Assembly (NCBI GenBank): GCA_030591525.1
Contig: JAUVAV010000015.1
Coordinates: 1 to 64,000, forward strand
Source of the DNA: a candidate division FCPU426 bacterium
GTDB taxonomy: Bacteria; Oederibacteriota; JAAXVQ01; JAUVAV01
Reading direction: 5' to 3'
DNA length: 64,000 nucleotides
Made by a program: the position numbers and the translations under genes. Under the pieces are notes generated by a model. That model was not told the origin of the DNA and ran no database searches. It saw only the letters and a list, made by a program, of their open reading frames with translations. Numbering within the stretch: position 1 is the stretch's first letter; every line of letters starts with the position of its first letter. Shown one piece after another: positions 33,815 through 61,605 of this stretch.

Positions 33815-36748
33815 ATGGTCTTAATGCAAAAAAACATCCAAGGTTTGGTTGACCGCCTGGTGCAATCACCCCAATACGCCGGCCGGGCGGTACACTACCG
33901 TTACCTGCCGCCGGGAGCGCCCGATTTCCAGGACCTGGATGAATCCTGGCCCGAACCTTTGCGCCGAGCCTTGGCAACATCCGGGATCTCCCGGCTTTTT
34001 TCACACCAAGCCGAGGCCATGGCACTGCTCCGGCGGGGAGAGCATACGGCGGTCACGACCCCGACCGCTTCCGGCAAAACCTTAATTTATAACATGGTGG
34101 TGTGCGAAAAACTTCTGCAAGATCCTAAAAGCTGCGCCCTCTATCTATTTCCCTTAAAAGCCTTGGCCCAGGATCAACTAAAAACTTTGCAGGCGTTTTT
34201 AAAACCGCTGGAGGATCCCGGACTTACCGCGGCCGTGTATGATGGCGATACGCCGCCTTCTGTGCGGGCCCGGCTGAAGCGTAATCCGCCCCGGGTTTTG
34301 TTTACCAATCCGGATATGCTCCATTACGGCATGTTGGCGCATGCCGAAGGCTGGCTGGATTTCTTCCGGCGGATTAGCGTGATAGTAATAGATGAAGCCC
34401 ATTCCTACCGGGGAGTATTTGGTTCCCACGTGGCCTTGATCTTACGGCGGTTGCAGCGTCTCTGCGGCCGGCCGGGTCCGACCCTGGCTGCCAGCTCGGC
34501 AACCATGGCCAATTCCCAGGAGTTTTTAAGACTGCTGACCGGTCAGAATTTTAATGTAATAGAGCGTTGCGGCGCGCCCCGGCAGGGCCGGCATGTTATC
34601 CTGGTTAATCCCAAAGGAAGTCCTTACCATGAAGCCGCGGAAATCCTATGTGAATGCCTGGATCATGAAATTAAGACGATTGTGTTTACCAAATCCCGTA
34701 AAATTACGGAATTGATACACATCTGGGTCAGGGAGGCCGCTCCGCGCTTTGCGGCGCGGATCGCGGCATATCGATCCGGCTATCTGCCCGAAGAGCGCCG
34801 GATTATAGAGCAGCGGCTTTTTCAGGAAGAATTATCCGCAGTGATCAGTACCAGTGCTCTGGAATCCGGGATTGATGTAGGCGGATTAGATGCTTGCGTG
34901 CTGGTAGGTTATCCCGGCACCATGATCAGCACCTGGCAGCGGGTCGGTCGTGCCGGACGGCAACGGGAGGCCTTAATGGTTTTAATTGCGCTGCCCGATG
35001 CCTTGGATCATTATTTTCTCAATCATCCCGAGGATTTTTTTAAGGCCCGGTTTGAGAACTGCGTATTAGACCCGGATAATCATCAAATCCTGCGGCAACA
35101 CTTGCCCTGCGCCGCCCGGGAAGCTCCTCTGACCCGGGAGGATGCGGGGTGTTTCGGTACCACAGCGTGGCAGCTTCTTCCCGAACTGGTTCAGGAAGGG
35201 CGGTTACATGAGACTGCGGAAGCGGACCGCTGGTTCAGCGCCCGCAAGCTGCCGCATCGTCATATGGAGATTCGGTCAGCCGGGGAACAGTATACTATTA
35301 AACACGCTGACCAGGAACGTGTTTTTGGCAGCATTGAAGAATCCCGGGTATTCAAGGAATGCCATCCCGGCGCGATCTATTTGCATGGCGGCCTGCAATA
35401 CGAAGTAGTTGGGTTGGAACTTATCGAGCATACTGTTTTGGTGAGAGCGGCATCCGGCGATTGGTATACCCAATATACCGGCTCGGAGGAGATCGAGATT
35501 CTGGACATCCCGGCCGGACAAGTAGTACGAACCTCGGCGGAGCGATTCACGGCCGGCTTAGCGCAGGTTCGGGTAACCGAAAAGGTGGTAGCCTATGAAC
35601 GCCGGCGGGTCAGAGACCGGTCGCTTATTTCAGAACATAAACTTCAGCTCCCGCCGCGAATTTTCGAAACTCAGGCAGTGGTCATAACCGTGCCCGGAAT
35701 CTGGCGCCGCCGCTGCTGGGAATATGGAATGGATTTTGCGGGGGGTCTGCATGCAGTGGAACACACTTTAATCGCCGCACTGCCGATCCAGGTGCTTTGC
35801 GACCGCTGGGATTTGGGCGGAGTTTCCACTATGGCGCATCCCCAGCTTGATCAGCCGGCTATTTTGATATATGATGGTTTTTCCGGAGGAGTTGGTTTGG
35901 CAGCCAAGGGATTGGCTGTGCGAAAGGATTGGCTCTCCGGCGCCCGGGAGATTATTGCGGGGTGTGCTTGCGAAGAAGGCTGCCCGGCTTGCATTCATTC
36001 GCCCAAATGCGGCAGCCGAAATCAACCCCTGGATAAGTCGGCTGGCCGGATGATTTTAGAGGCGGTTGCGCGTGAAACCATTTCGGACTTGAATCTTACT
36101 TCTTTGTCCCGGGATCGGATAGACCCGTTGGCTGCAAGAAAGGAGAAAAACATAATGACTCAACCGGAAGCAACCTCCCGTCCGCCGGATCAGAAATTTC
36201 GACTCCTGGTTTTTGACCTGGAGACTCAAAAGAGCGCGGCCGAAGTGGGGGGATGGGGGAACATAGACCGCATGCGGCTTTCCCTGGGAGTGGTGTATGA
36301 TCATTCCACCGGGGCGTATACGGCTTACCGGGAAGATAAAGTGGGAGAACTCATGCAGCATCTGCTCTCGGCTGATGCGGTGGTGGGTTATAATATAGAC
36401 CGCTTTGATCTGACCGTGCTTTCCCCGTACAGTGACCATGTGAATCGCATCAGGACCTTTGATCTTGCCAAGGATGTCTGGCAAAGATTAGGACATCGTA
36501 TCGCGTTGGACAAATTAGCCCAATCCACCTTGCAGCGAGGTAAAACCGCGGAAGGACTGCAAGCCATCACCTGGTACCGGGAAGGCAACTGGGAAGCCTT
36601 GGAAGCCTACTGCCGGGCGGATGTGGAAATCACCCGCGATCTTTTCTGGTTTGGCTGGCGCTATAATTACTTGCTTTTCGAGCGTCAGGGAGTACAAATG
36701 AAAGTGCCGGTAGCCTGGCGGGAACGGTTTCCGACTTTAATACCTTAG
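33815..36748 (+). CDS. MrfA-type helicase fused to MrfB-type exonuclease
   Basis: 977 residues. Residues 1-780 are a superfamily 2 helicase of the YprA/MrfA group: TPTASGKT, DEAH, SATMANSQEF and QRVGRAGRQ motifs, then a DUF1998/MZB region with four Cys (CACEEGCPACIHSPKCG). Residues about 790-977 are an RNase-H-like exonuclease of the YprB/MrfB kind: FDLETQ, GYNIDRFD and YCRAD supply DEDD residues. In Bacillus MrfA and MrfB are separate and repair mitomycin damage. An internal AGGAG and in-frame ATG (36155) precede the nuclease domain. The TAG stop lies in TTAG beside element B1. Confidence 0.88.
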   Translation: MVLMQKNIQGLVDRLVQSPQYAGRAVHYRYLPPGAPDFQDLDESWPEPLRRALATSGISRLFSHQAEAMALLRRGEHTAVTTPTASGKTLIYNMVVCEKLLQDPKSCALYLFPLKALAQDQLKTLQAFLKPLEDPGLTAAVYDGDTPPSVRARLKRNPPRVLFTNPDMLHYGMLAHAEGWLDFFRRISVIVIDEAHSYRGVFGSHVALILRRLQRLCGRPGPTLAASSATMANSQEFLRLLTGQNFNVIERCGAPRQGRHVILVNPKGSPYHEAAEILCECLDHEIKTIVFTKSRKITELIHIWVREAAPRFAARIAAYRSGYLPEERRIIEQRLFQEELSAVISTSALESGIDVGGLDACVLVGYPGTMISTWQRVGRAGRQREALMVLIALPDALDHYFLNHPEDFFKARFENCVLDPDNHQILRQHLPCAAREAPLTREDAGCFGTTAWQLLPELVQEGRLHETAEADRWFSARKLPHRHMEIRSAGEQYTIKHADQERVFGSIEESRVFKECHPGAIYLHGGLQYEVVGLELIEHTVLVRAASGDWYTQYTGSEEIEILDIPAGQVVRTSAERFTAGLAQVRVTEKVVAYERRRVRDRSLISEHKLQLPPRIFETQAVVITVPGIWRRRCWEYGMDFAGGLHAVEHTLIAALPIQVLCDRWDLGGVSTMAHPQLDQPAILIYDGFSGGVGLAAKGLAVRKDWLSGAREIIAGCACEEGCPACIHSPKCGSRNQPLDKSAGRMILEAVARETISDLNLTSLSRDRIDPLAARKEKNIMTQPEATSRPPDQKFRLLVFDLETQKSAAEVGGWGNIDRMRLSLGVVYDHSTGAYTAYREDKVGELMQHLLSADAVVGYNIDRFDLTVLSPYSDHVNRIRTFDLAKDVWQRLGHRIALDKLAQSTLQRGKTAEGLQAITWYREGNWEALEAYCRADVEITRDLFWFGWRYNYLLFERQGVQMKVPVAWRERFPTLIP
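36155..36748 (+). other. Possible internal translation start for the exonuclease domain
   Basis: AAAGGAG at 36139-36145 is followed after nine bases by ATG 36155, in frame with the helicase-exonuclease gene. It would give a free 197-residue nuclease domain beginning MTQPEATSRPPDQKFRLL. Either the domain is made both fused and free, or this is a trace of two once separate genes. Confidence 0.5.
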
Positions 36749-36909
36749 GAGCCGGTTGGACTTAGGCACAAAAGCAGGTTTTAAGCACTCTTCCCCCTTT
36801 TGTAAAGGGGGATTGAGGGGGATTTTGAACAGATAGTTGTGCGTTTTTTTAATAAATCCCCCCAGCCCCCTTTACAAAAGGGGGAAAAAGACTTATGTCC
36901 GACAGACTC
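36749..36909. mobile_element. Family B palindromic element, copy B1
   Basis: 161 bp between TTAG (36745-36748, containing the helicase stop codon) and CTAG (36910-36913). Ends are GAGCCGGTTGGACTTAGGC and its inverted form near GTCCGACAGACTC. The interior has repeated CCCCCTTT and AAAGGGGG blocks that can fold into several hairpins. Copies B2 and B3 are nearly identical to it over the whole length, so spread was recent. Confidence 0.78.
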
Positions 36910-36948
36910 CTAGGCAAAGCTGAAAATACTTTAAAACCAGGAGGAAAA

Positions 36949-39900
36949 ATGAGGGCGTTAAAATCCATTGTATTTTTAATAAGTTTAATATTTATTGCTT
37001 TTCTTAGCTATGGTCAAACAAAAGAAACAATAATAGAAATCCAAGGGGAAAATGTTGGTTTTAGTGAGGTGGATTCTTATTATGAAAGCGGAAAAATAAA
37101 AAAAGGTTCTTTATCCCAAGACACAACGCTAATGGTAGGCGAAACTGAGATTTCTTTTGAAGCAGGTAAAAAGATTGAGTTTGATAAAAACGGGAATGTA
37201 TATTTGGAATCTTTATCCCAAGACACAAAGTTAAAAGTAGGCGCAACTGAGATTACTTTTACACCAAGTAAGGAGATTAAATTTCATGAAAATGGGAATG
37301 CAAAAAAAGGCTATTTATCTCAAGACACAACGCTAAAGGTGGGCGAAACTGAGATTTCTTTTAAAGCCGGTGAAAGAATTGGATTACATGACAACGGGAA
37401 GGTATTTTGGGGATATTTATCCCAAGACACCAAGTTAAAGGCAGGAGCAACTGAGATTCCTTTTAAAGCAGGTAAAGAGATTGTATTTCATGAAAGTGGG
37501 AATGTAAGCAAAGGCTATCTATCCCAAGACACAAAGCTAAAGGTAGGCGAAAATTTAATTTTTTTTAAAGCGGGCGAAAAGATTTGGCTTGATAATAACG
37601 GGAATGTAAGCAAAGGCTATTTATTCCAAGACACAACGTTAAAGGTGGCAGCAACTAAGATTCCTTTTAAAGCAAGTGTATGGATTTGCTTTCATGAAAA
37701 TGGGAAGGTATTTTGGGGGTTTTTATCTCAAGACACAACGCTAAAGGTGGGCGTAAATAAAATTTCTTTTAAAGCAAGCAAAAAGATTCAGTTTGATGAA
37801 AATGGAAATGTATATTTTGGATATTTATCCCGAGACACAAAGTTAAAGGCAGGAGCAACTGAGGTTTCTTTTAGAGCCGGTAAAGTAATTGGATTTCATA
37901 AAAACGGGAAGGTGTCTTGGGGATTTTTATCCCAAGACACAACGCTGAAGGTAGGTGAAACTGAGATTTCTTTTAAAGCTGGTAAAAAGATTCAGTTTCG
38001 TGAAAACGGGAATGTATATTTCGGATATTTATCCCAAGACACAACGCTGAAGGTGGCAGAAACTGAGATTCCTTTTAAAGCAGGTGAAAAGATCGAATTT
38101 TATAAAAACGGGAATGTATTGTGGGGATCTTTATCCCAAGACTCAACGCTAAAGGTGGGCGAAAATAAGATTTCTTTTAAAGCAGATAAAAAGATTGTGT
38201 TTCATGGAAATGGGAATGTAAAAAAAGGATCTTTGTCCCAAGACACAACGCTAAAGGTGACAGCAACTGAGGTTCCTTTTACAGCCGGCAAAGAGATTGA
38301 CTTTCAGGAAAATGGAAATGTGGATTCCGGCTATCTATCCCGAGACACAAAGCTAAAGGTGGGCGAGAATAAAATTCCTTTTAAAGCAGGTGAAAAGATC
38401 GAATTTGATAAAAGCGGGAATGTATATTTGGGCTATTTATCCCAAGACACAAGGCTGAAGGTGGGGGAGAATAAAATTCCTTTTAAAGCAGGTGAAAAGA
38501 TCAAATTTTATAAAAACGGGGATGTAAACAGAGGCTATTTATCCCAAGACACAAAGCTAAAGGTGGGCGAGAATAAAATTCCTTTTAAGGCAGGTAAAGA
38601 GATTCGGTTTAGTAAAAATGGGAAGGTAGACAGCGGATGTTTGTCTCATGATACAACGCTACAAGTAGGCGAATATAGATTTTCATTTAGAGCAGGTAAA
38701 GAAATTTGGCTTGGTCAAGATGGGGTGGTAATCAGCGGATATTTATCTCATTATACGCCTCTAAAAGTAGGCGAAAATAAGATTGTATTTCAAATAAATC
38801 GCGAGACTTTATTTTATTCAAATAACATAGGGCCAAATATACAGTGCGGATATCTATTCCAAGACACAAAGTTAAACGTTGGAGGGCAAAGTATTTTGTT
38901 TAAAGCAGGTAAAAGGATCAAGTTTTATGTAAATGGGGAGGTAAGCCGCGGATATTTATCTCAAGCTACCACGCTAAAAGTGGGGGAAAATAGAATTTCA
39001 TTTGCAGCAGGTAAAAGCATTGATTTTTATGAAAATGGGGATGTAAACGACGGATATTTATCTCAAGCTACCACGCTAAAAGTGGGGGAAAATAGAATTT
39101 CGTTTGCAGCAGGTAAAAGCATTAATTTTCATGAAAATGGGAATGTAGAATATGGACATTTATCCCAAGCTACCACGCTAAAAGTGGGAGAGTATAGAAT
39201 TTCATTTGCAGCAGGTAAAAAGATTTGGTTTGGTGAAAATGGGAATGTGGCTTTGGGCTATTTATCCCAAGACATCAAGCTGAAGGTAGGCGAAACCGAG
39301 ATTACTTTTATAGCCGGTAATCAAATTGGTTTTCATGAAAATGGGAATATAAACTACGGATGTTTATCCCCGGACACAACCCTAAAGGTGGGAGAGAATA
39401 GAATTCCTTTTAAAACATATGGAGGGGTTGAATTTTATGAAAATGGGAATATATGGAACGGATATTTATCCCAAGATACAAAGCTAAAGGTAGGAGAGTA
39501 TGGAATTTCATTTAAAACAGGTAAAAGCATTTGTTTTTATGAAAACGGGAATATGAGCCACGGATATTTATCCCGAGACACAACGCTAAAGGTGGCGGCA
39601 ACTGAGATTCCTTTTGAGGCCGGTAGCGGGATTGGATTTCATGAAAACGGGCATGTAAGCAATGGCTGTTTATCTCAAGCTGCAAAGCTAAAGGTAGGCG
39701 AAACTGAGATTTCTTTCGCAAGCGCAGAGATCAAATTTTATAAAAATGAGAATGTGAGACAGGGATTTTTATCTCAAGCTACAACGCTAAAAACAGGAGA
39801 GTATAAAATTTTGTTTGCAGCAGGTAAAAGGATTGGATTTTATGAAAATGGGGATGTAAACAACGGATATTCATCTCAAGCGAGAGCGCTAAAAGTAGGA

Positions 39901-40836
39901 GAGTATAGAATTTTATTTGCAGCAGGTGAATGGATGGGCTTTTACAAAAACGGAAATGTGAGCCAGGGATATTTATCTCAAGCTAAAACGCTGAAAGTGG
40001 GAGAGTATAAAATTTTGTTTGCAGCAGGTAAAAGCATTGGATTTCATGAAAACGGGAGTGTGAGAAAAGGATATTTAAGCCAAGATACAAAGCTGAAGGC
40101 AGGCGGAAATGAGATTTCTTTTCAAGCAATTAGGGAGATTGGATTTCATGAAAGCGGGAGTGTAAGAAAAGGATATTTAAGCCAAGATACAAAGCTGAAG
40201 GCAGGCGGAACTGTGTTTCCTTTTCAAGCAGGTAAAAGCATTGGATTTCATGAAAACGGGAGTGTAAGAAAAGGATATTTAACCCATGATACAACGTTGA
40301 AGGCAGGCGGAACTGAGATTCCTTTTCAAGCAATTAGGGAGATTGGATTTTATGAAAACGGGAATGTGAAAAAAGGATGTTTAACCCAAGCGACAACGTT
40401 GAAGACAGGCGAAACTGAGATTCCTTTTCAAGCAAGTAAAGAGATGGGATTTTATGAAAATGGGGAAGTAAAATATGGCAAAGCAGCAGAAACAGTTAGC
40501 ATTAATAAAAACCTGGATATAATAACAGGAGCGTGGATTTATTATTATTCTAAACTAAATAAGATTTATATAATATCACCAGACGATAGATTTCAACTCG
40601 AAAAAGACATTCCCTATATAATAAATGGAATAGGCAAGGTTGAGATAATATTACCTAAAGGAAGTTATATAACGAGATATAGTGTGGAGTTTATTTCCTC
40701 GATAACCCCTTTGGTTGATATACATTTGCAGGGGGAAATCATTGCTAAACAAGATGAACAGGCTATTTTTGAGAAGTTGCTAGAGAAAGCTCGGAAAATT
40801 ATAATAAAGAAAAGTAATCTGTTAGTAACACACTGA
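36949..40836 (+). CDS. Giant secreted protein with thirty-three 34-residue repeats
   Basis: 1295 residues. A signal peptide (MRALKSIVFLISLIFIAF, cut near SYGQT) is followed from about residue 57 by 33 tandem units of 34 residues with consensus GYLSQDTxLKVGxxEIxF then xAGKxIxFxENGNVxx. The ENGNV-x-x-G part recalls MORN-type repeats. Unit 17 has a three-residue insertion and unit 26 is one short. About 120 C-terminal residues are unlike the repeats. The gene is clearly AT-richer than its neighbours. ATG 36949 has AGGAGG at 36939-36944. Function unknown; a surface or periplasmic beta-rich rod is likely. Confidence 0.85.
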   Translation: MRALKSIVFLISLIFIAFLSYGQTKETIIEIQGENVGFSEVDSYYESGKIKKGSLSQDTTLMVGETEISFEAGKKIEFDKNGNVYLESLSQDTKLKVGATEITFTPSKEIKFHENGNAKKGYLSQDTTLKVGETEISFKAGERIGLHDNGKVFWGYLSQDTKLKAGATEIPFKAGKEIVFHESGNVSKGYLSQDTKLKVGENLIFFKAGEKIWLDNNGNVSKGYLFQDTTLKVAATKIPFKASVWICFHENGKVFWGFLSQDTTLKVGVNKISFKASKKIQFDENGNVYFGYLSRDTKLKAGATEVSFRAGKVIGFHKNGKVSWGFLSQDTTLKVGETEISFKAGKKIQFRENGNVYFGYLSQDTTLKVAETEIPFKAGEKIEFYKNGNVLWGSLSQDSTLKVGENKISFKADKKIVFHGNGNVKKGSLSQDTTLKVTATEVPFTAGKEIDFQENGNVDSGYLSRDTKLKVGENKIPFKAGEKIEFDKSGNVYLGYLSQDTRLKVGENKIPFKAGEKIKFYKNGDVNRGYLSQDTKLKVGENKIPFKAGKEIRFSKNGKVDSGCLSHDTTLQVGEYRFSFRAGKEIWLGQDGVVISGYLSHYTPLKVGENKIVFQINRETLFYSNNIGPNIQCGYLFQDTKLNVGGQSILFKAGKRIKFYVNGEVSRGYLSQATTLKVGENRISFAAGKSIDFYENGDVNDGYLSQATTLKVGENRISFAAGKSINFHENGNVEYGHLSQATTLKVGEYRISFAAGKKIWFGENGNVALGYLSQDIKLKVGETEITFIAGNQIGFHENGNINYGCLSPDTTLKVGENRIPFKTYGGVEFYENGNIWNGYLSQDTKLKVGEYGISFKTGKSICFYENGNMSHGYLSRDTTLKVAATEIPFEAGSGIGFHENGHVSNGCLSQAAKLKVGETEISFASAEIKFYKNENVRQGFLSQATTLKTGEYKILFAAGKRIGFYENGDVNNGYSSQARALKVGEYRILFAAGEWMGFYKNGNVSQGYLSQAKTLKVGEYKILFAAGKSIGFHENGSVRKGYLSQDTKLKAGGNEISFQAIREIGFHESGSVRKGYLSQDTKLKAGGTVFPFQAGKSIGFHENGSVRKGYLTHDTTLKAGGTEIPFQAIREIGFYENGNVKKGCLTQATTLKTGETEIPFQASKEMGFYENGEVKYGKAAETVSINKNLDIITGAWIYYYSKLNKIYIISPDDRFQLEKDIPYIINGIGKVEIILPKGSYITRYSVEFISSITPLVDIHLQGEIIAKQDEQAIFEKLLEKARKIIIKKSNLLVTH

Positions 40837-41060
40837 GGGTGACGCCTGAAGTATCAGTGCCAGGGATGACCTTATATCCGCACAGAGGAGAGTGGATCTG
40901 TCATTAGTCATCAAGTTTGACCCCTCTGGTCATAAGTTTGTCCCCCCTGAATCATCCCGTAATCCAGGGCCGGGTGGGAACGGTTTCCAACTTTAATAGG
41001 TTGACGCTGAACTTGGGCCAATGGTATTATAAAAAAAAATAAAATAATGGAGTTCCGACA
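40837..41060. other. Spacer with worn copy of the helicase gene end
   Basis: GCCGGGTGGGAACGGTTTCC and the next ten bases (40969-40998) match the last codons of the helicase-exonuclease gene (36713-36742) at 27 of 30 positions and in translation read AGWERFPTLIG against AWRERFPTLIP. Two imperfect tandem copies of TCATMAGTTTGWCCCC lie at about 40899-40945. These look like marks of insertion of the repeat gene. Confidence 0.5.
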
Positions 41061-50667: not shown

Positions 50668-50827
50668 GAGTCTGTCGGACTTAGGCACAAAAGCGGGTTT
50701 TAAGCACTCTTCCCCCTTTGAAAAAGGGGGATTGAGGGGGATTTTGAACAGATAGTTGTGCGTTTTTTCAATAAATCCCCCTGCCCCCTTTACAAAAGGG
50801 GGAGAATGACTTAAGTTCGACAGACTG
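50668..50827. mobile_element. Family B palindromic element, copy B2
   Basis: 160 bp between CAAG (50664-50667, worn) and CTAG (50828-50831). Ends GAGTCTGTCGGACTTAGGC and GTTCGACAGACTG. The interior matches B1 and B3 almost base for base, including the CCCCCTTT stems. Confidence 0.75.
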
Positions 50828-50993
50828 CTAGACGGGTACGGCGTCCATTTTGTCACCCCGGCGAAAGCCGGGGTCTAGGAAGTGTTTTTTTGTATTACAA
50901 TGCTTTTCTGGATTCCGGCTTTCGCCGGAATGACGACCTGGGAATTGTTTTTCGCAACATCACCAATCATTTTCACATTTCTCCACTTTCCTC

Positions 50994-51022: not shown

Positions 51023-51133
51023 TCTTTGATTCAAATTCTCACGCGGCCGGACTGTTCCGGAGGTGCCTGGCAACAGGTTCCGAAACAGGGTGATGGCCGC
51101 GGCGGATAAACCAAATTGAGAGGGGAAAAAAGT

Positions 51134-52096
51134 ATGGCAAATGTTTCCATGAAGCAATTATTAGAAGCCGGGGTCCATTTTGGACATCAGACGCGTCGTT
51201 GGAACCCTAAGATGGCCCGTTATATTTACGGTGAACGCAACGGTATTTACATTATAGATCTGCAAAAAACCGTAAAAAAACTGAAGGAAGCCATGAAATT
51301 CATACGTGAAATAGTCAGCCGGGGCGAGAAAATTCTTTTTGTGGGTACCAAGAAACAGGCCAAGATTTCCATTCAGGAGGAAGCTGCCCGTTGCGGAATG
51401 TTTTTTGTTAGTCAGCGTTGGTTGGGCGGTACGCTGACTAATTTCCAGACTATCAAAAAAACCATTACGAGAATGAAGGACCTTGAGCTCCACCTGGAAG
51501 ACGGATCTCTGGAGAAACTTCCCAAAAAAGAGCGGTTGCATCTGGCCAAGGAACTGGCTAAAATGCAGCGCTCGGTTGGCGGAATTAAGGACATCGAAGC
51601 TCTGCCCGGGGCGATGTTTGTGGTAGATACCAAGAAAGAACACAACGCACTTCTCGAAGCCCGGAAATTGGGTATTCCGATTGTGGGAGTCGTGGATTCT
51701 AATTGTGATCCGGACGAGGTGGATTATATTATACCGGGTAATGACGATGCCATCCGCGCCGTCCGGCTGATTTCAAGCATGATCGCTGAGTCCGCGCTGG
51801 AAGGCGAGGAGATCCGGCGCCGGGAATTAGAAAGACAAAAGAAAGAAGCGGAAGATGCCGGTGAGTCGAAAGATACCGGTGAGTCGGAAGATGCGGGTGA
51901 GTCGGAAGATGCCGGTAAGTTGGAAGATGATGAGAAAGCTGTAAAGACGGAAACGGGCGGGGAAGTTGGCGGAATCCAGGCAGTAAAAGAGCCCGGAGCA
52001 GGCCCGCAGCCGGCGGCTGATGAAAGCAAACTACCGCCGGAGCAGGATGTTCCCGCAGCCAACGATACTACGGATGAATCTCCGGTAGAAGTGTAA
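51134..52096 (+). CDS. rpsB: 30S ribosomal protein S2 with acidic C-terminal extension
   Basis: 320 residues; the S2 body (about residues 1-235) is normal: [38 protein letters not shown] and [20 protein letters not shown] highly acidic tail of about 85 residues follows, beginning with four copies of an 18-bp repeat that encodes ED-x-GES. ATG 51134 follows GAGAGGGGAAAAAAGT. First gene of the translation and lipid block that runs to proS. Confidence 0.96.
51851..51922 (+). repeat. Four 18-bp tandem repeats in rpsB
   Basis: GAAGATGCCGGTGAGTCG and three variants in tandem, giving a Glu-Asp-x-Gly-Glu-Ser periodicity in the S2 tail. An in-frame unit, so copy number could vary without breaking the gene. 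Confidence 0.85.
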
Positions 52097-53489: not shown

Positions 53490-53650
53490 GAGCCTGTCGG
53501 GCTTAGGCACAAAAGCGGGTTTTAATCACTCTTCCCCCTTTGAAAAAGGGGGATTGAGGGGGATTTTGAACAGATAGGTGTGCGTTTTTTCAATAAATCC
53601 CCCCGGCCCCCTTTACAAAAGGGGGAGAAAAACTTAAGTCCGACAAACTC
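53490..53650. mobile_element. Family B palindromic element, copy B3
   Basis: 161 bp between CTAG at 53486-53489 and CTAG at 53651-53654. Ends GAGCCTGTCGGGCTTAGGC and GTCCGACAAACTC. The best preserved copy, with both CTAG flanks. It lies inside the otherwise compact pyrH-frr operon. Confidence 0.8.
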
Positions 53651-53688
53651 CTAGTAAGACAAGGGACAGAGAATTTTGGAGGTGAAAA

Positions 53689-61230: not shown

Positions 61231-61605
61231 TCATTTACTTGCAAATCTAAATTTAGCTTTCTTTTGATCGCTTTCTTCCTCTAAGATTATCAGTTTAGTA
61301 ATCATTTCATCTAAAAAGGAATTGATTAGCTCGTTATCAACTTCCAGAAATTCCTCGTCGGTTATTTCTTGCAGAAGATTTTGGGCATTTACCTGCGTAA
61401 TTCCACTCATAATTTCACCCATTAAGAATATCTGTATCATATCATCTAAAAAAGAATTGATTAGTTTATCATCAACTTTCAGAAATTCCTCGTCAGTCAT
61501 TTCTTGCGAAAGATTTTGGGCATTTACCTGCGAGATTCCACCCATAAGCCCACTTATTAAGAATATTTGTATCATAAAAACCAGCAAACAGATTTTTTTA
61601 ATCAT
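61231..61605 (-). CDS. Small secreted protein made of a duplicated 45-residue unit
   Basis: 124 residues. A signal peptide (MIKKICLLVFMIQIFLISG) leads into SQVNAQNLSQEMTDEEFLKV. A second unit from about residue 56 repeats MIQIF, then the ITQVNAQNLLQEITDEEFLEV segment and LINSFLDEMI. So the signal peptide's second half, the cleavage region and the acidic part are all duplicated in tandem. AAGGTGGTGAAAAGT precedes the ATG. AT-rich; no family recognised. Confidence 0.6.
   Translation of the reverse strand: MIKKICLLVFMIQIFLISGLMGGISQVNAQNLSQEMTDEEFLKVDDKLINSFLDDMIQIFLMGEIMSGITQVNAQNLLQEITDEEFLEVDNELINSFLDEMITKLIILEEESDQKKAKFRFASK

What the first reader, a model, noticed from the sequence alone, without database searches (positions are those of the whole stretch)
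36949..40836. Secreted protein of thirty-three 34-residue repeats
Repeats occupy nearly 90 percent of a 1295-residue protein and keep 34-residue phase with only two exceptions (units 17 and 26). Neighbouring units such as 19-21 and 29-32 are very alike in DNA, so the array is growing or being homogenised. The C-terminal 120 residues are different and may be an anchor. Composition is AT-rich beside GC-balanced neighbours. The repeat joins an LKVGxxxIxFxAG strand pair with an ENGNV MORN-like turn.
Basis: partly seen in the sequence, partly recalled or inferred. Interest (0 to 1): 0.65.

Follow-up and report, generated by a model that had tools for sequence, protein, structure and literature searches.

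The report
Giant exported MORN-like beta-repeat protein
The window carries a gene, apparently foreign to this bacterium, for a very long protein built from 33 similar 34-residue beta-sheet blocks; the blocks belong with the widespread but functionally obscure bacterial MORN-type (MORN_2) repeats, so it is an unusually long and divergent example of a known kind rather than a new kind.

Summary
Frame 36949-40836 encodes 1295 residues: a signal-peptide-like start, a degenerate unit, 33 units (34 aa; unit 17 = 37, unit 26 = 33) over 87% of the protein, and a 119-residue tail. Direct family searches give nothing trustworthy. However, a profile built from 42 repeats of five proteins of other lineages scores this protein at 508 bits, against at most 11.9 in controls; all five pass Pfam's MORN_2 cut-off. 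AlphaFold gives confident all-beta units with four strands, i.e. two hairpins, each; Foldseek ranks viral MORN-repeat proteins first. So it is a long, divergent MORN_2-like protein, not an orphan repeat. The gene looks foreign: GC3 0.31 against 0.47-0.61 in 20 neighbours, absent from the other 44 held genomes of its phylum, in a slot nearly empty in three related genera and differently filled in a sister species, beside a 165-bp multicopy repeat and bracketed by a 30-bp duplication. Adjacent units are more alike than random ones (p = 5e-5). The C-terminal 'anchor' is unsupported. Most likely role: an extracytoplasmic scaffold or adhesive ribbon; that is inferred, not shown.

The parts
36949..40836 (+). 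Coding sequence of the repeat protein, 1295 aa, about 141 kDa mature, pI about 9.1
36939..36944 (+). Shine-Dalgarno AGGAGG four bases before the ATG
   Evidence: read directly
36949..37017 (+). Signal-peptide-like N-terminus MRALKSIVFLISLIFIAFLSYGQ, by composition only
   Evidence: no dedicated predictor was available
37018..37104 (+). Degenerate unit 0 (TKETIIEIQGENVGFSEVDSYYESGKIKK); its YYESGKIKK stretch is matched by the relatives' profile
   Evidence: domain 1 (17.2 bits)
37105..40476 (+). 33 tandem units, consensus GYLSQDTTLKVGETEISFKAGKKIGFHENGNVSK; four beta strands (two hairpins) per unit in the models
40477..40833 (+). C-terminal 119 residues: first part seems to continue the sheet, the rest is unpredicted plus one helix; no membrane segment
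36749..36913 (+). 165-bp multicopy intergenic repeat (MITE-like; ends read CTAGGAG / CTCCTAG in the better copies) that starts at the stop codon of the preceding helicase gene and ends 35 bp before the ATG
   Evidence: about ten near-full-length copies in the genome and many fragments; two more in the window at 50668-50831 and 53490-53654
36713..36742 (+). Upstream copy of a 30-bp direct repeat (3' end of the helicase gene)
40969..40998 (+). Downstream copy of the same direct repeat, 90% identical, just before the next gene's promoter-like TTGACG

Best explanation
This is a horizontally acquired, exported protein made almost entirely of MORN_2-like beta-hairpin repeats. Each 34-residue unit folds as two beta-hairpins: the MORN_2-like 'IxFxENGNVxxGYL' hairpin and a second 'LKVGExxISF' hairpin. 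Stacked end to end they would make a long, twisted, mostly single-layer beta ribbon of about 66 hairpins. The protein probably leaves the cytoplasm by the Sec route and works outside it as a scaffold, spacer or multivalent adhesive surface whose length is set by repeat number; the array changes length by unequal recombination between similar neighbouring units. Shown by computation: the repeat array, its homology to MORN_2-type repeats, a confident all-beta model of the units, foreign composition, insertion at a synteny breakpoint, excess similarity of neighbouring units. Inferred: export, ribbon shape over the full length, and the scaffold or adhesive role.
For: A profile from 42 repeats of five proteins of other lineages scores this protein at 507.8 bits; the maximum over 300 residue shuffles is 11.9 and over 300 column-permuted periodic controls 6.1. 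All five source proteins exceed the MORN_2 gathering score, by 7 to 29 bits (L064, L075, L089, L109; the caspase-fusion protein). All 25 three-unit segments match MORN_2 at E <= 10, best 3.8e-5. The four-unit model has pLDDT 96.6 with four strands per unit. Foldseek's top viral matches are MORN-repeat proteins, probability 0.72-1.00; the top solved structures are OspA variants with a single-layer sheet. pN/pS of 0.58 between units indicates maintained coding. GC3 0.31 vs 0.47-0.61, and an insert between two genes that are neighbours in related genera, indicate acquisition.
Against: The full protein itself scores only 11 bits against MORN_2, below the 29.6 cut-off. TM-scores of the fold matches are low (0.15-0.24) and the four-unit model finds no solved structure below E = 0.015. 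Unit period and two-hairpin layout differ from the 23-residue, one-hairpin MORN repeat defined by crystal structures (PMC7725318). Nothing in the neighbourhood hints at a surface role. Export rests on an N-terminal hydrophobic stretch only.
Confidence: 0.6

Rival explanations
1. It is an orphan repeat family, not related to MORN_2; the FYENG-G similarity is a convergent beta-turn.
For: Direct scores to MORN_2 are under the cut-off; no relative in the other 44 genomes of the phylum, in phages or plasmids, or in the first genome scan.
Against: Local alignment of the whole protein to the repeats of a caspase-fusion protein of another lineage: 437 columns, 127 bits, E 2.9e-33 in a two-sequence search. 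A profile from other lineages reaches 508 bits while periodic, composition-matched controls stay at or below 6.1; the match spans IxFxENGxVxxGxLxxDTxI, far more than a turn.
Confidence: 0.07
2. It is a decaying or selfish expansion: a horizontally acquired AT-rich repeat gene under little selection that is not a functional scaffold.
For: pN/pS of 0.58 is only mild constraint, and the recent pairs 30/31 (pS 0.05, pN 0.13) and 30/32 (0.09, 0.11) show none; a multicopy repeat sits immediately upstream; the sister species lacks the gene.
Against: The frame is intact over 3.9 kb with a good Shine-Dalgarno; L9, F18 and G30 are invariant in all 31 aligned 34-residue units; phase is kept in 31 of 33 units and the two exceptions stay in frame.
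Confidence: 0.2
3. It is an antitoxin- or immunity-type protein, as MORN_2/YwqK proteins are sometimes named, rather than a scaffold.
For: Fusobacterium MORN2 proteins are described as possessing YwqK domains that may work in toxin-antitoxin or abortive-infection systems (PMC12940168).
Against: No partner gene lies next to it on either strand: its neighbours are the two genes that are adjacent to each other in related genera. Thirty-three repeats and an exported-looking N-terminus do not fit a small cytoplasmic antitoxin; NCBIfam gives no trustworthy hit.
Confidence: 0.05

Closest known systems
MORN_2 (Pfam PF07661, MORN repeat variant), including the MORN2 proteins of Fusobacterium nucleatum
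   Same: I-x-F-Y-x-N-G-x-V/I-x-x-G hairpin core; tandem arrays; most Fusobacterium members carry signal sequences and have 1 to 27 repeats, function unknown (PMC12940168)
   Different: 34-residue units with a second hairpin instead of about 20 residues; 33 units; below the MORN_2 cut-off directly
30-36-residue MORN_2-type arrays in Margulisiibacteriota (L089), a groundwater deltaproteobacterium (L075), Spirochaetales (L109), a tailed-phage contig (L064) and a caspase-domain protein (L044/L085)
   Same: FYENGxVxxGxLAxxTxIxGxxYKxGxx: same order of motifs in long tandem arrays, sometimes with little else in the protein
   Different: Mostly 30-31 residues per unit, the second hairpin about four residues shorter than here; fewer units
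MORN repeat of eukaryotes, e.g. TbMORN1 (PMC7725318)
   Same: Beta-hairpin repeat stacked into an elongated ribbon, as far as the models go
   Different: 23-residue single-hairpin unit with the consensus YxGEWx2Gx3GxGx3Yx2Gx2
Borrelia OspA single-layer beta-sheet
   Same: Best solved-structure match to the six-unit repeat model (E 8.1e-4)
   Different: No sequence similarity found; E 0.027 or worse with the clean four-unit model

Membership tests
MORN_2 (PF07661) | Whole-protein score above the curated cut-off of 29.6 bits | tested here: not met
   11 bits for the protein; 13.6 bits for the first three-unit segment
MORN_2 (PF07661) | Detectable homology to accepted MORN_2 repeats | tested here: met
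   A profile built only from other proteins, all of which pass the MORN_2 cut-off, hits this protein at 507.8 bits against at most 11.9 in controls
MORN repeat (structure-based definition, PMC7725318) | 23-residue unit: one beta-hairpin plus a 6-residue linker | tested here: not met
   34-residue units with four strands, i.e. two hairpins, in models with pLDDT mostly above 90
MORN repeat (structure-based definition, PMC7725318) | Open elongated beta ribbon of stacked hairpins | tested here: inconclusive
DUF5649, STIV_penton_2nd, DUF4550, DUF4429, DUF2777 (Pfam hits over cut-off) | At least one convincing domain-level match | tested here: not met
   Zero stretches pass on their own; column-permuted periodic controls of about half the length also draw spurious hits near 20 bits
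Sec-exported protein | N-terminal signal peptide | tested here: inconclusive
   Hydrophobic 19-residue windows only at starts 1-7, with Arg and Lys before the core; no predictor run
C-terminally anchored surface protein | C-terminal membrane segment or sorting motif | tested here: not met
   No hydrophobic window above 1.1 in the tail and no LPXTG-like motif by eye; a type IX sorting domain was not searched with its own profile, but Pfam and NCBIfam list none

The most novel reading that the evidence does not exclude
The 30-36-residue double-hairpin repeat is a separate, so far unnamed repeat class related to MORN_2 and shared by bacteria, archaea and tailed phages, and this 33-unit protein is a horizontally moved, actively expanding representative carried into a variable chromosomal slot.
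Probability: 0.3. Interest if true: 0.5.

Novelty: new variant of a known kind. Interest (0 to 1): 0.36.

Why it matters
MORN_2-type proteins are abundant in bacteria and their function is unknown. A protein that is almost nothing but such repeats, with a longer unit and a confidently predicted two-hairpin module, is a clean object for solving the structure of the bacterial form and for asking whether these arrays are extracellular spacers, adhesins or something else. It also shows that standard profile cut-offs miss strongly related members.

Tried and rejected
Direct Pfam, NCBIfam, PHROG and PDB sequence searches: only weak, mutually contradictory hits with no domain-level support; rejected as a summing artefact after a control with permuted repeats. 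Full-protein search of 58 relatives, phages and plasmids: nothing. Degenerate-peptide scans with the LSQDTTLK motif in viral and genome collections: no confirmed relative. What worked was a DNA pattern for two FYENG turns 75-95 bases apart. Weak profile hits in G059, G156, G306 and G313: G306 and G313 were inspected and look unrelated; G059 and G156 were not followed. An alignment mixing both lineages was too diverse for a degenerate scan. Overlapping-window alignments A4 and A5 were discarded because MAFFT aligned shared sequence rather than unit register. Most of the 53 pattern loci were only skimmed; several are ordinary MORN_2 arrays matched at an odd spacing (e.g. L086, L090). The organism could not be named with the tools.

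Full report
OBSERVATION. The frame at 36949-40836 is intact, starts four bases after AGGAGG, and encodes 1295 residues. Cutting it at the G-Y-L-S motif gives 33 units at 37105-40476; 31 are exactly 34 residues, unit 17 has 37 and unit 26 has 33; together they make up 86.8% of the protein. TRF sees the same array as 102 bp x 32.8. The consensus is GYLSQDTTLKVGETEISFKAGKKIGFHENGNVSK, with L9, F18 and G30 invariant in all 31 34-residue units. A degenerate unit precedes unit 1 (...YYESGKIKK), and its second half is matched by a profile of relatives (domain 1).

ARRAY DYNAMICS. Adjacent units are more alike than units in random order (0.755 vs 0.714, 20000 permutations, p = 5e-5), similarity falls with distance (Mantel r = -0.22, p = 0.003), and the longest exact repeat is 51 bp. 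The closest pairs are 19/20 (92%), 30/32 (89%), 30/31 (88%) and, not adjacent, 1/9 (88%). This fits local duplication or conversion. Mean pN/pS over unit pairs is 0.58: the unit is constrained, but not tightly, and the most recent pairs show no constraint.

WHERE IT CAME FROM. The gene has GC 0.367 and GC3 0.311; 20 neighbouring genes have GC3 0.47-0.61. It is absent from the other 44 held genomes of its phylum by profile and from 58 relatives by full protein. In three other genera of the family (G002, G004, G005) the helicase-nuclease gene that precedes it here is followed within about 0.1-0.4 kb by the gene that follows it here. In the sister species G001 the same two genes lie on different contigs: the helicase gene (91% identical protein) is followed by a different, minus-strand small gene, and the downstream gene is preceded by unrelated DNA up to the bases TTTAATAGG. 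Here the insert is bracketed by a 30-bp direct repeat, 90% identical (36713-36742 and 40969-40998). A 165-bp multicopy repeat with CTAGGAG-type ends fills 36749-36913, with about ten near-full-length copies elsewhere in the genome, two of them in this window. The simplest reading is a variable slot that received this gene by horizontal transfer. The mechanism of insertion is not resolved, and the contig ends in G001 leave its full cargo unknown.

WHAT THE REPEAT IS. Direct searches fail: MORN_2 scores 11 bits, the PDB gives nothing, and the Pfam families over cut-off have no domain-level match; permuted repeats also attract spurious hits near 20 bits. A three-unit profile (A1) found one distant relative, a caspase-domain protein with 13 C-terminal repeats of 31 residues (G176, the record JAKPEO010000045). 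Local alignment of the whole protein to it gives 127 bits over 437 columns. A DNA pattern for two FYENG turns 75-95 bases apart then brought in 53 bacterial and archaeal stretches and two viral contigs. Five proteins with tandem arrays of the same motif order were used as the reference set: L064, L075, L089, L109 and L085 (the last is the caspase protein). A profile of 42 of their units, with no unit of this protein in it, scores this protein at 507.8 bits and matches 30 or more stretches in phase; 300 residue shuffles reach 11.9 and 300 column-permuted periodic versions 6.1. All five pass the MORN_2 cut-off. Profiles from single proteins (8-13 units each) do the same on their own, at 160-410 bits, except the two usable units of L109. 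Hence the repeats are MORN_2-like by homology, although the protein fails that family's own cut-off.

STRUCTURE. AlphaFold2 on units 28-33 plus the tail (four-row alignment) gives block pLDDT 87-97 over the repeats and below 50 for most of the tail; four units with eight rows give 96.6 and pTM 0.87. Each unit has four strands: the two around the ENGN turn and the two of LKVGExxISF, so two hairpins per 34 residues. Foldseek's first viral matches are MORN-repeat proteins of Orpheovirus and Gaeavirus (E 8.8e-6 and 1.2e-5, probability 0.98 and 0.97); the first solved structures are engineered OspA sheets (E 8.1e-4). TM-scores are low (0.15-0.24), the four-unit model alone finds nothing in the PDB below E = 0.015, and coordinates could not be inspected, so the ribbon shape is a supported inference, not a demonstration. 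The MORN repeat as defined from crystals is a 23-residue single hairpin plus a 6-residue linker (PMC7725318); this unit differs.

FUNCTION. The N-terminus is signal-peptide-like and is the only strongly hydrophobic part; the tail is basic, has no membrane segment and no visible anchor. Fusobacterium MORN2 proteins offer the nearest described precedent: 1 to 27 repeats, mostly with signal sequences, found in outer-membrane vesicles, function unknown, adhesion or docking proposed (PMC12940168). Taken together, an exported, length-variable, multivalent ribbon serving as scaffold or adhesin is the best guess (0.6 for the statement as a whole; the role itself is the weakest step).

VERDICT. A real and striking gene, an outlier in repeat number and unit length, but it joins a known, poorly understood repeat family. 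Interest is moderate.

Noticed in passing
36749-36913, 50668-50831, 53490-53654: A 165-bp intergenic repeat with inverted ends (CTAGGAG...) and an internal palindrome (CCCCCTTTTGTAAAGGGGG / CCCCCTTTACAAAAGGGGG), about ten near-full copies plus many fragments in the genome; two of the three window copies end about 35 bp before an ATG.
   Followed up: partly
L064 4758-5594: A tailed-phage contig (IMGVR_UViG_3300028591_000337, with lysozyme- and baseplate-like genes) carries a 278-aa protein that is almost nothing but about nine of these repeats, just beyond the lysis genes.
   Followed up: partly
L044 145-3480: A caspase-domain (Peptidase_C14) protein with 13 C-terminal MORN_2-like repeats of 31 residues in an unnamed bacterium (JAKPEO010000045).
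   Followed up: partly
L063 9454-10020 and L107: The same kind of repeat in a contig labelled uncultured Methanobrevibacter that is also listed as a viral contig: an archaeal or proviral occurrence.
   Followed up: no
40907-40956: Two near-identical 21-bp units GTCATCAAGTTTGACCCCCCTG downstream of the gene; a 75-bp stretch here has an 86% match in contig C73 of the same genome.
   Followed up: no
61301-61576: Two copies of a 135-bp tandem repeat (85% matches) in an AT-rich stretch (GC 0.35).
   Followed up: no
51849-51929: 4.5 copies of an 18-bp unit CGGAAGATGCCGGTGAGT inside the frame 51116-52096.
   Followed up: no
L144 (G001 C151) after position 163: In the sister species the helicase gene is followed by a different AT-rich minus-strand gene with a signal-peptide-like start, so this chromosomal slot looks like a variable site.
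   Followed up: partly
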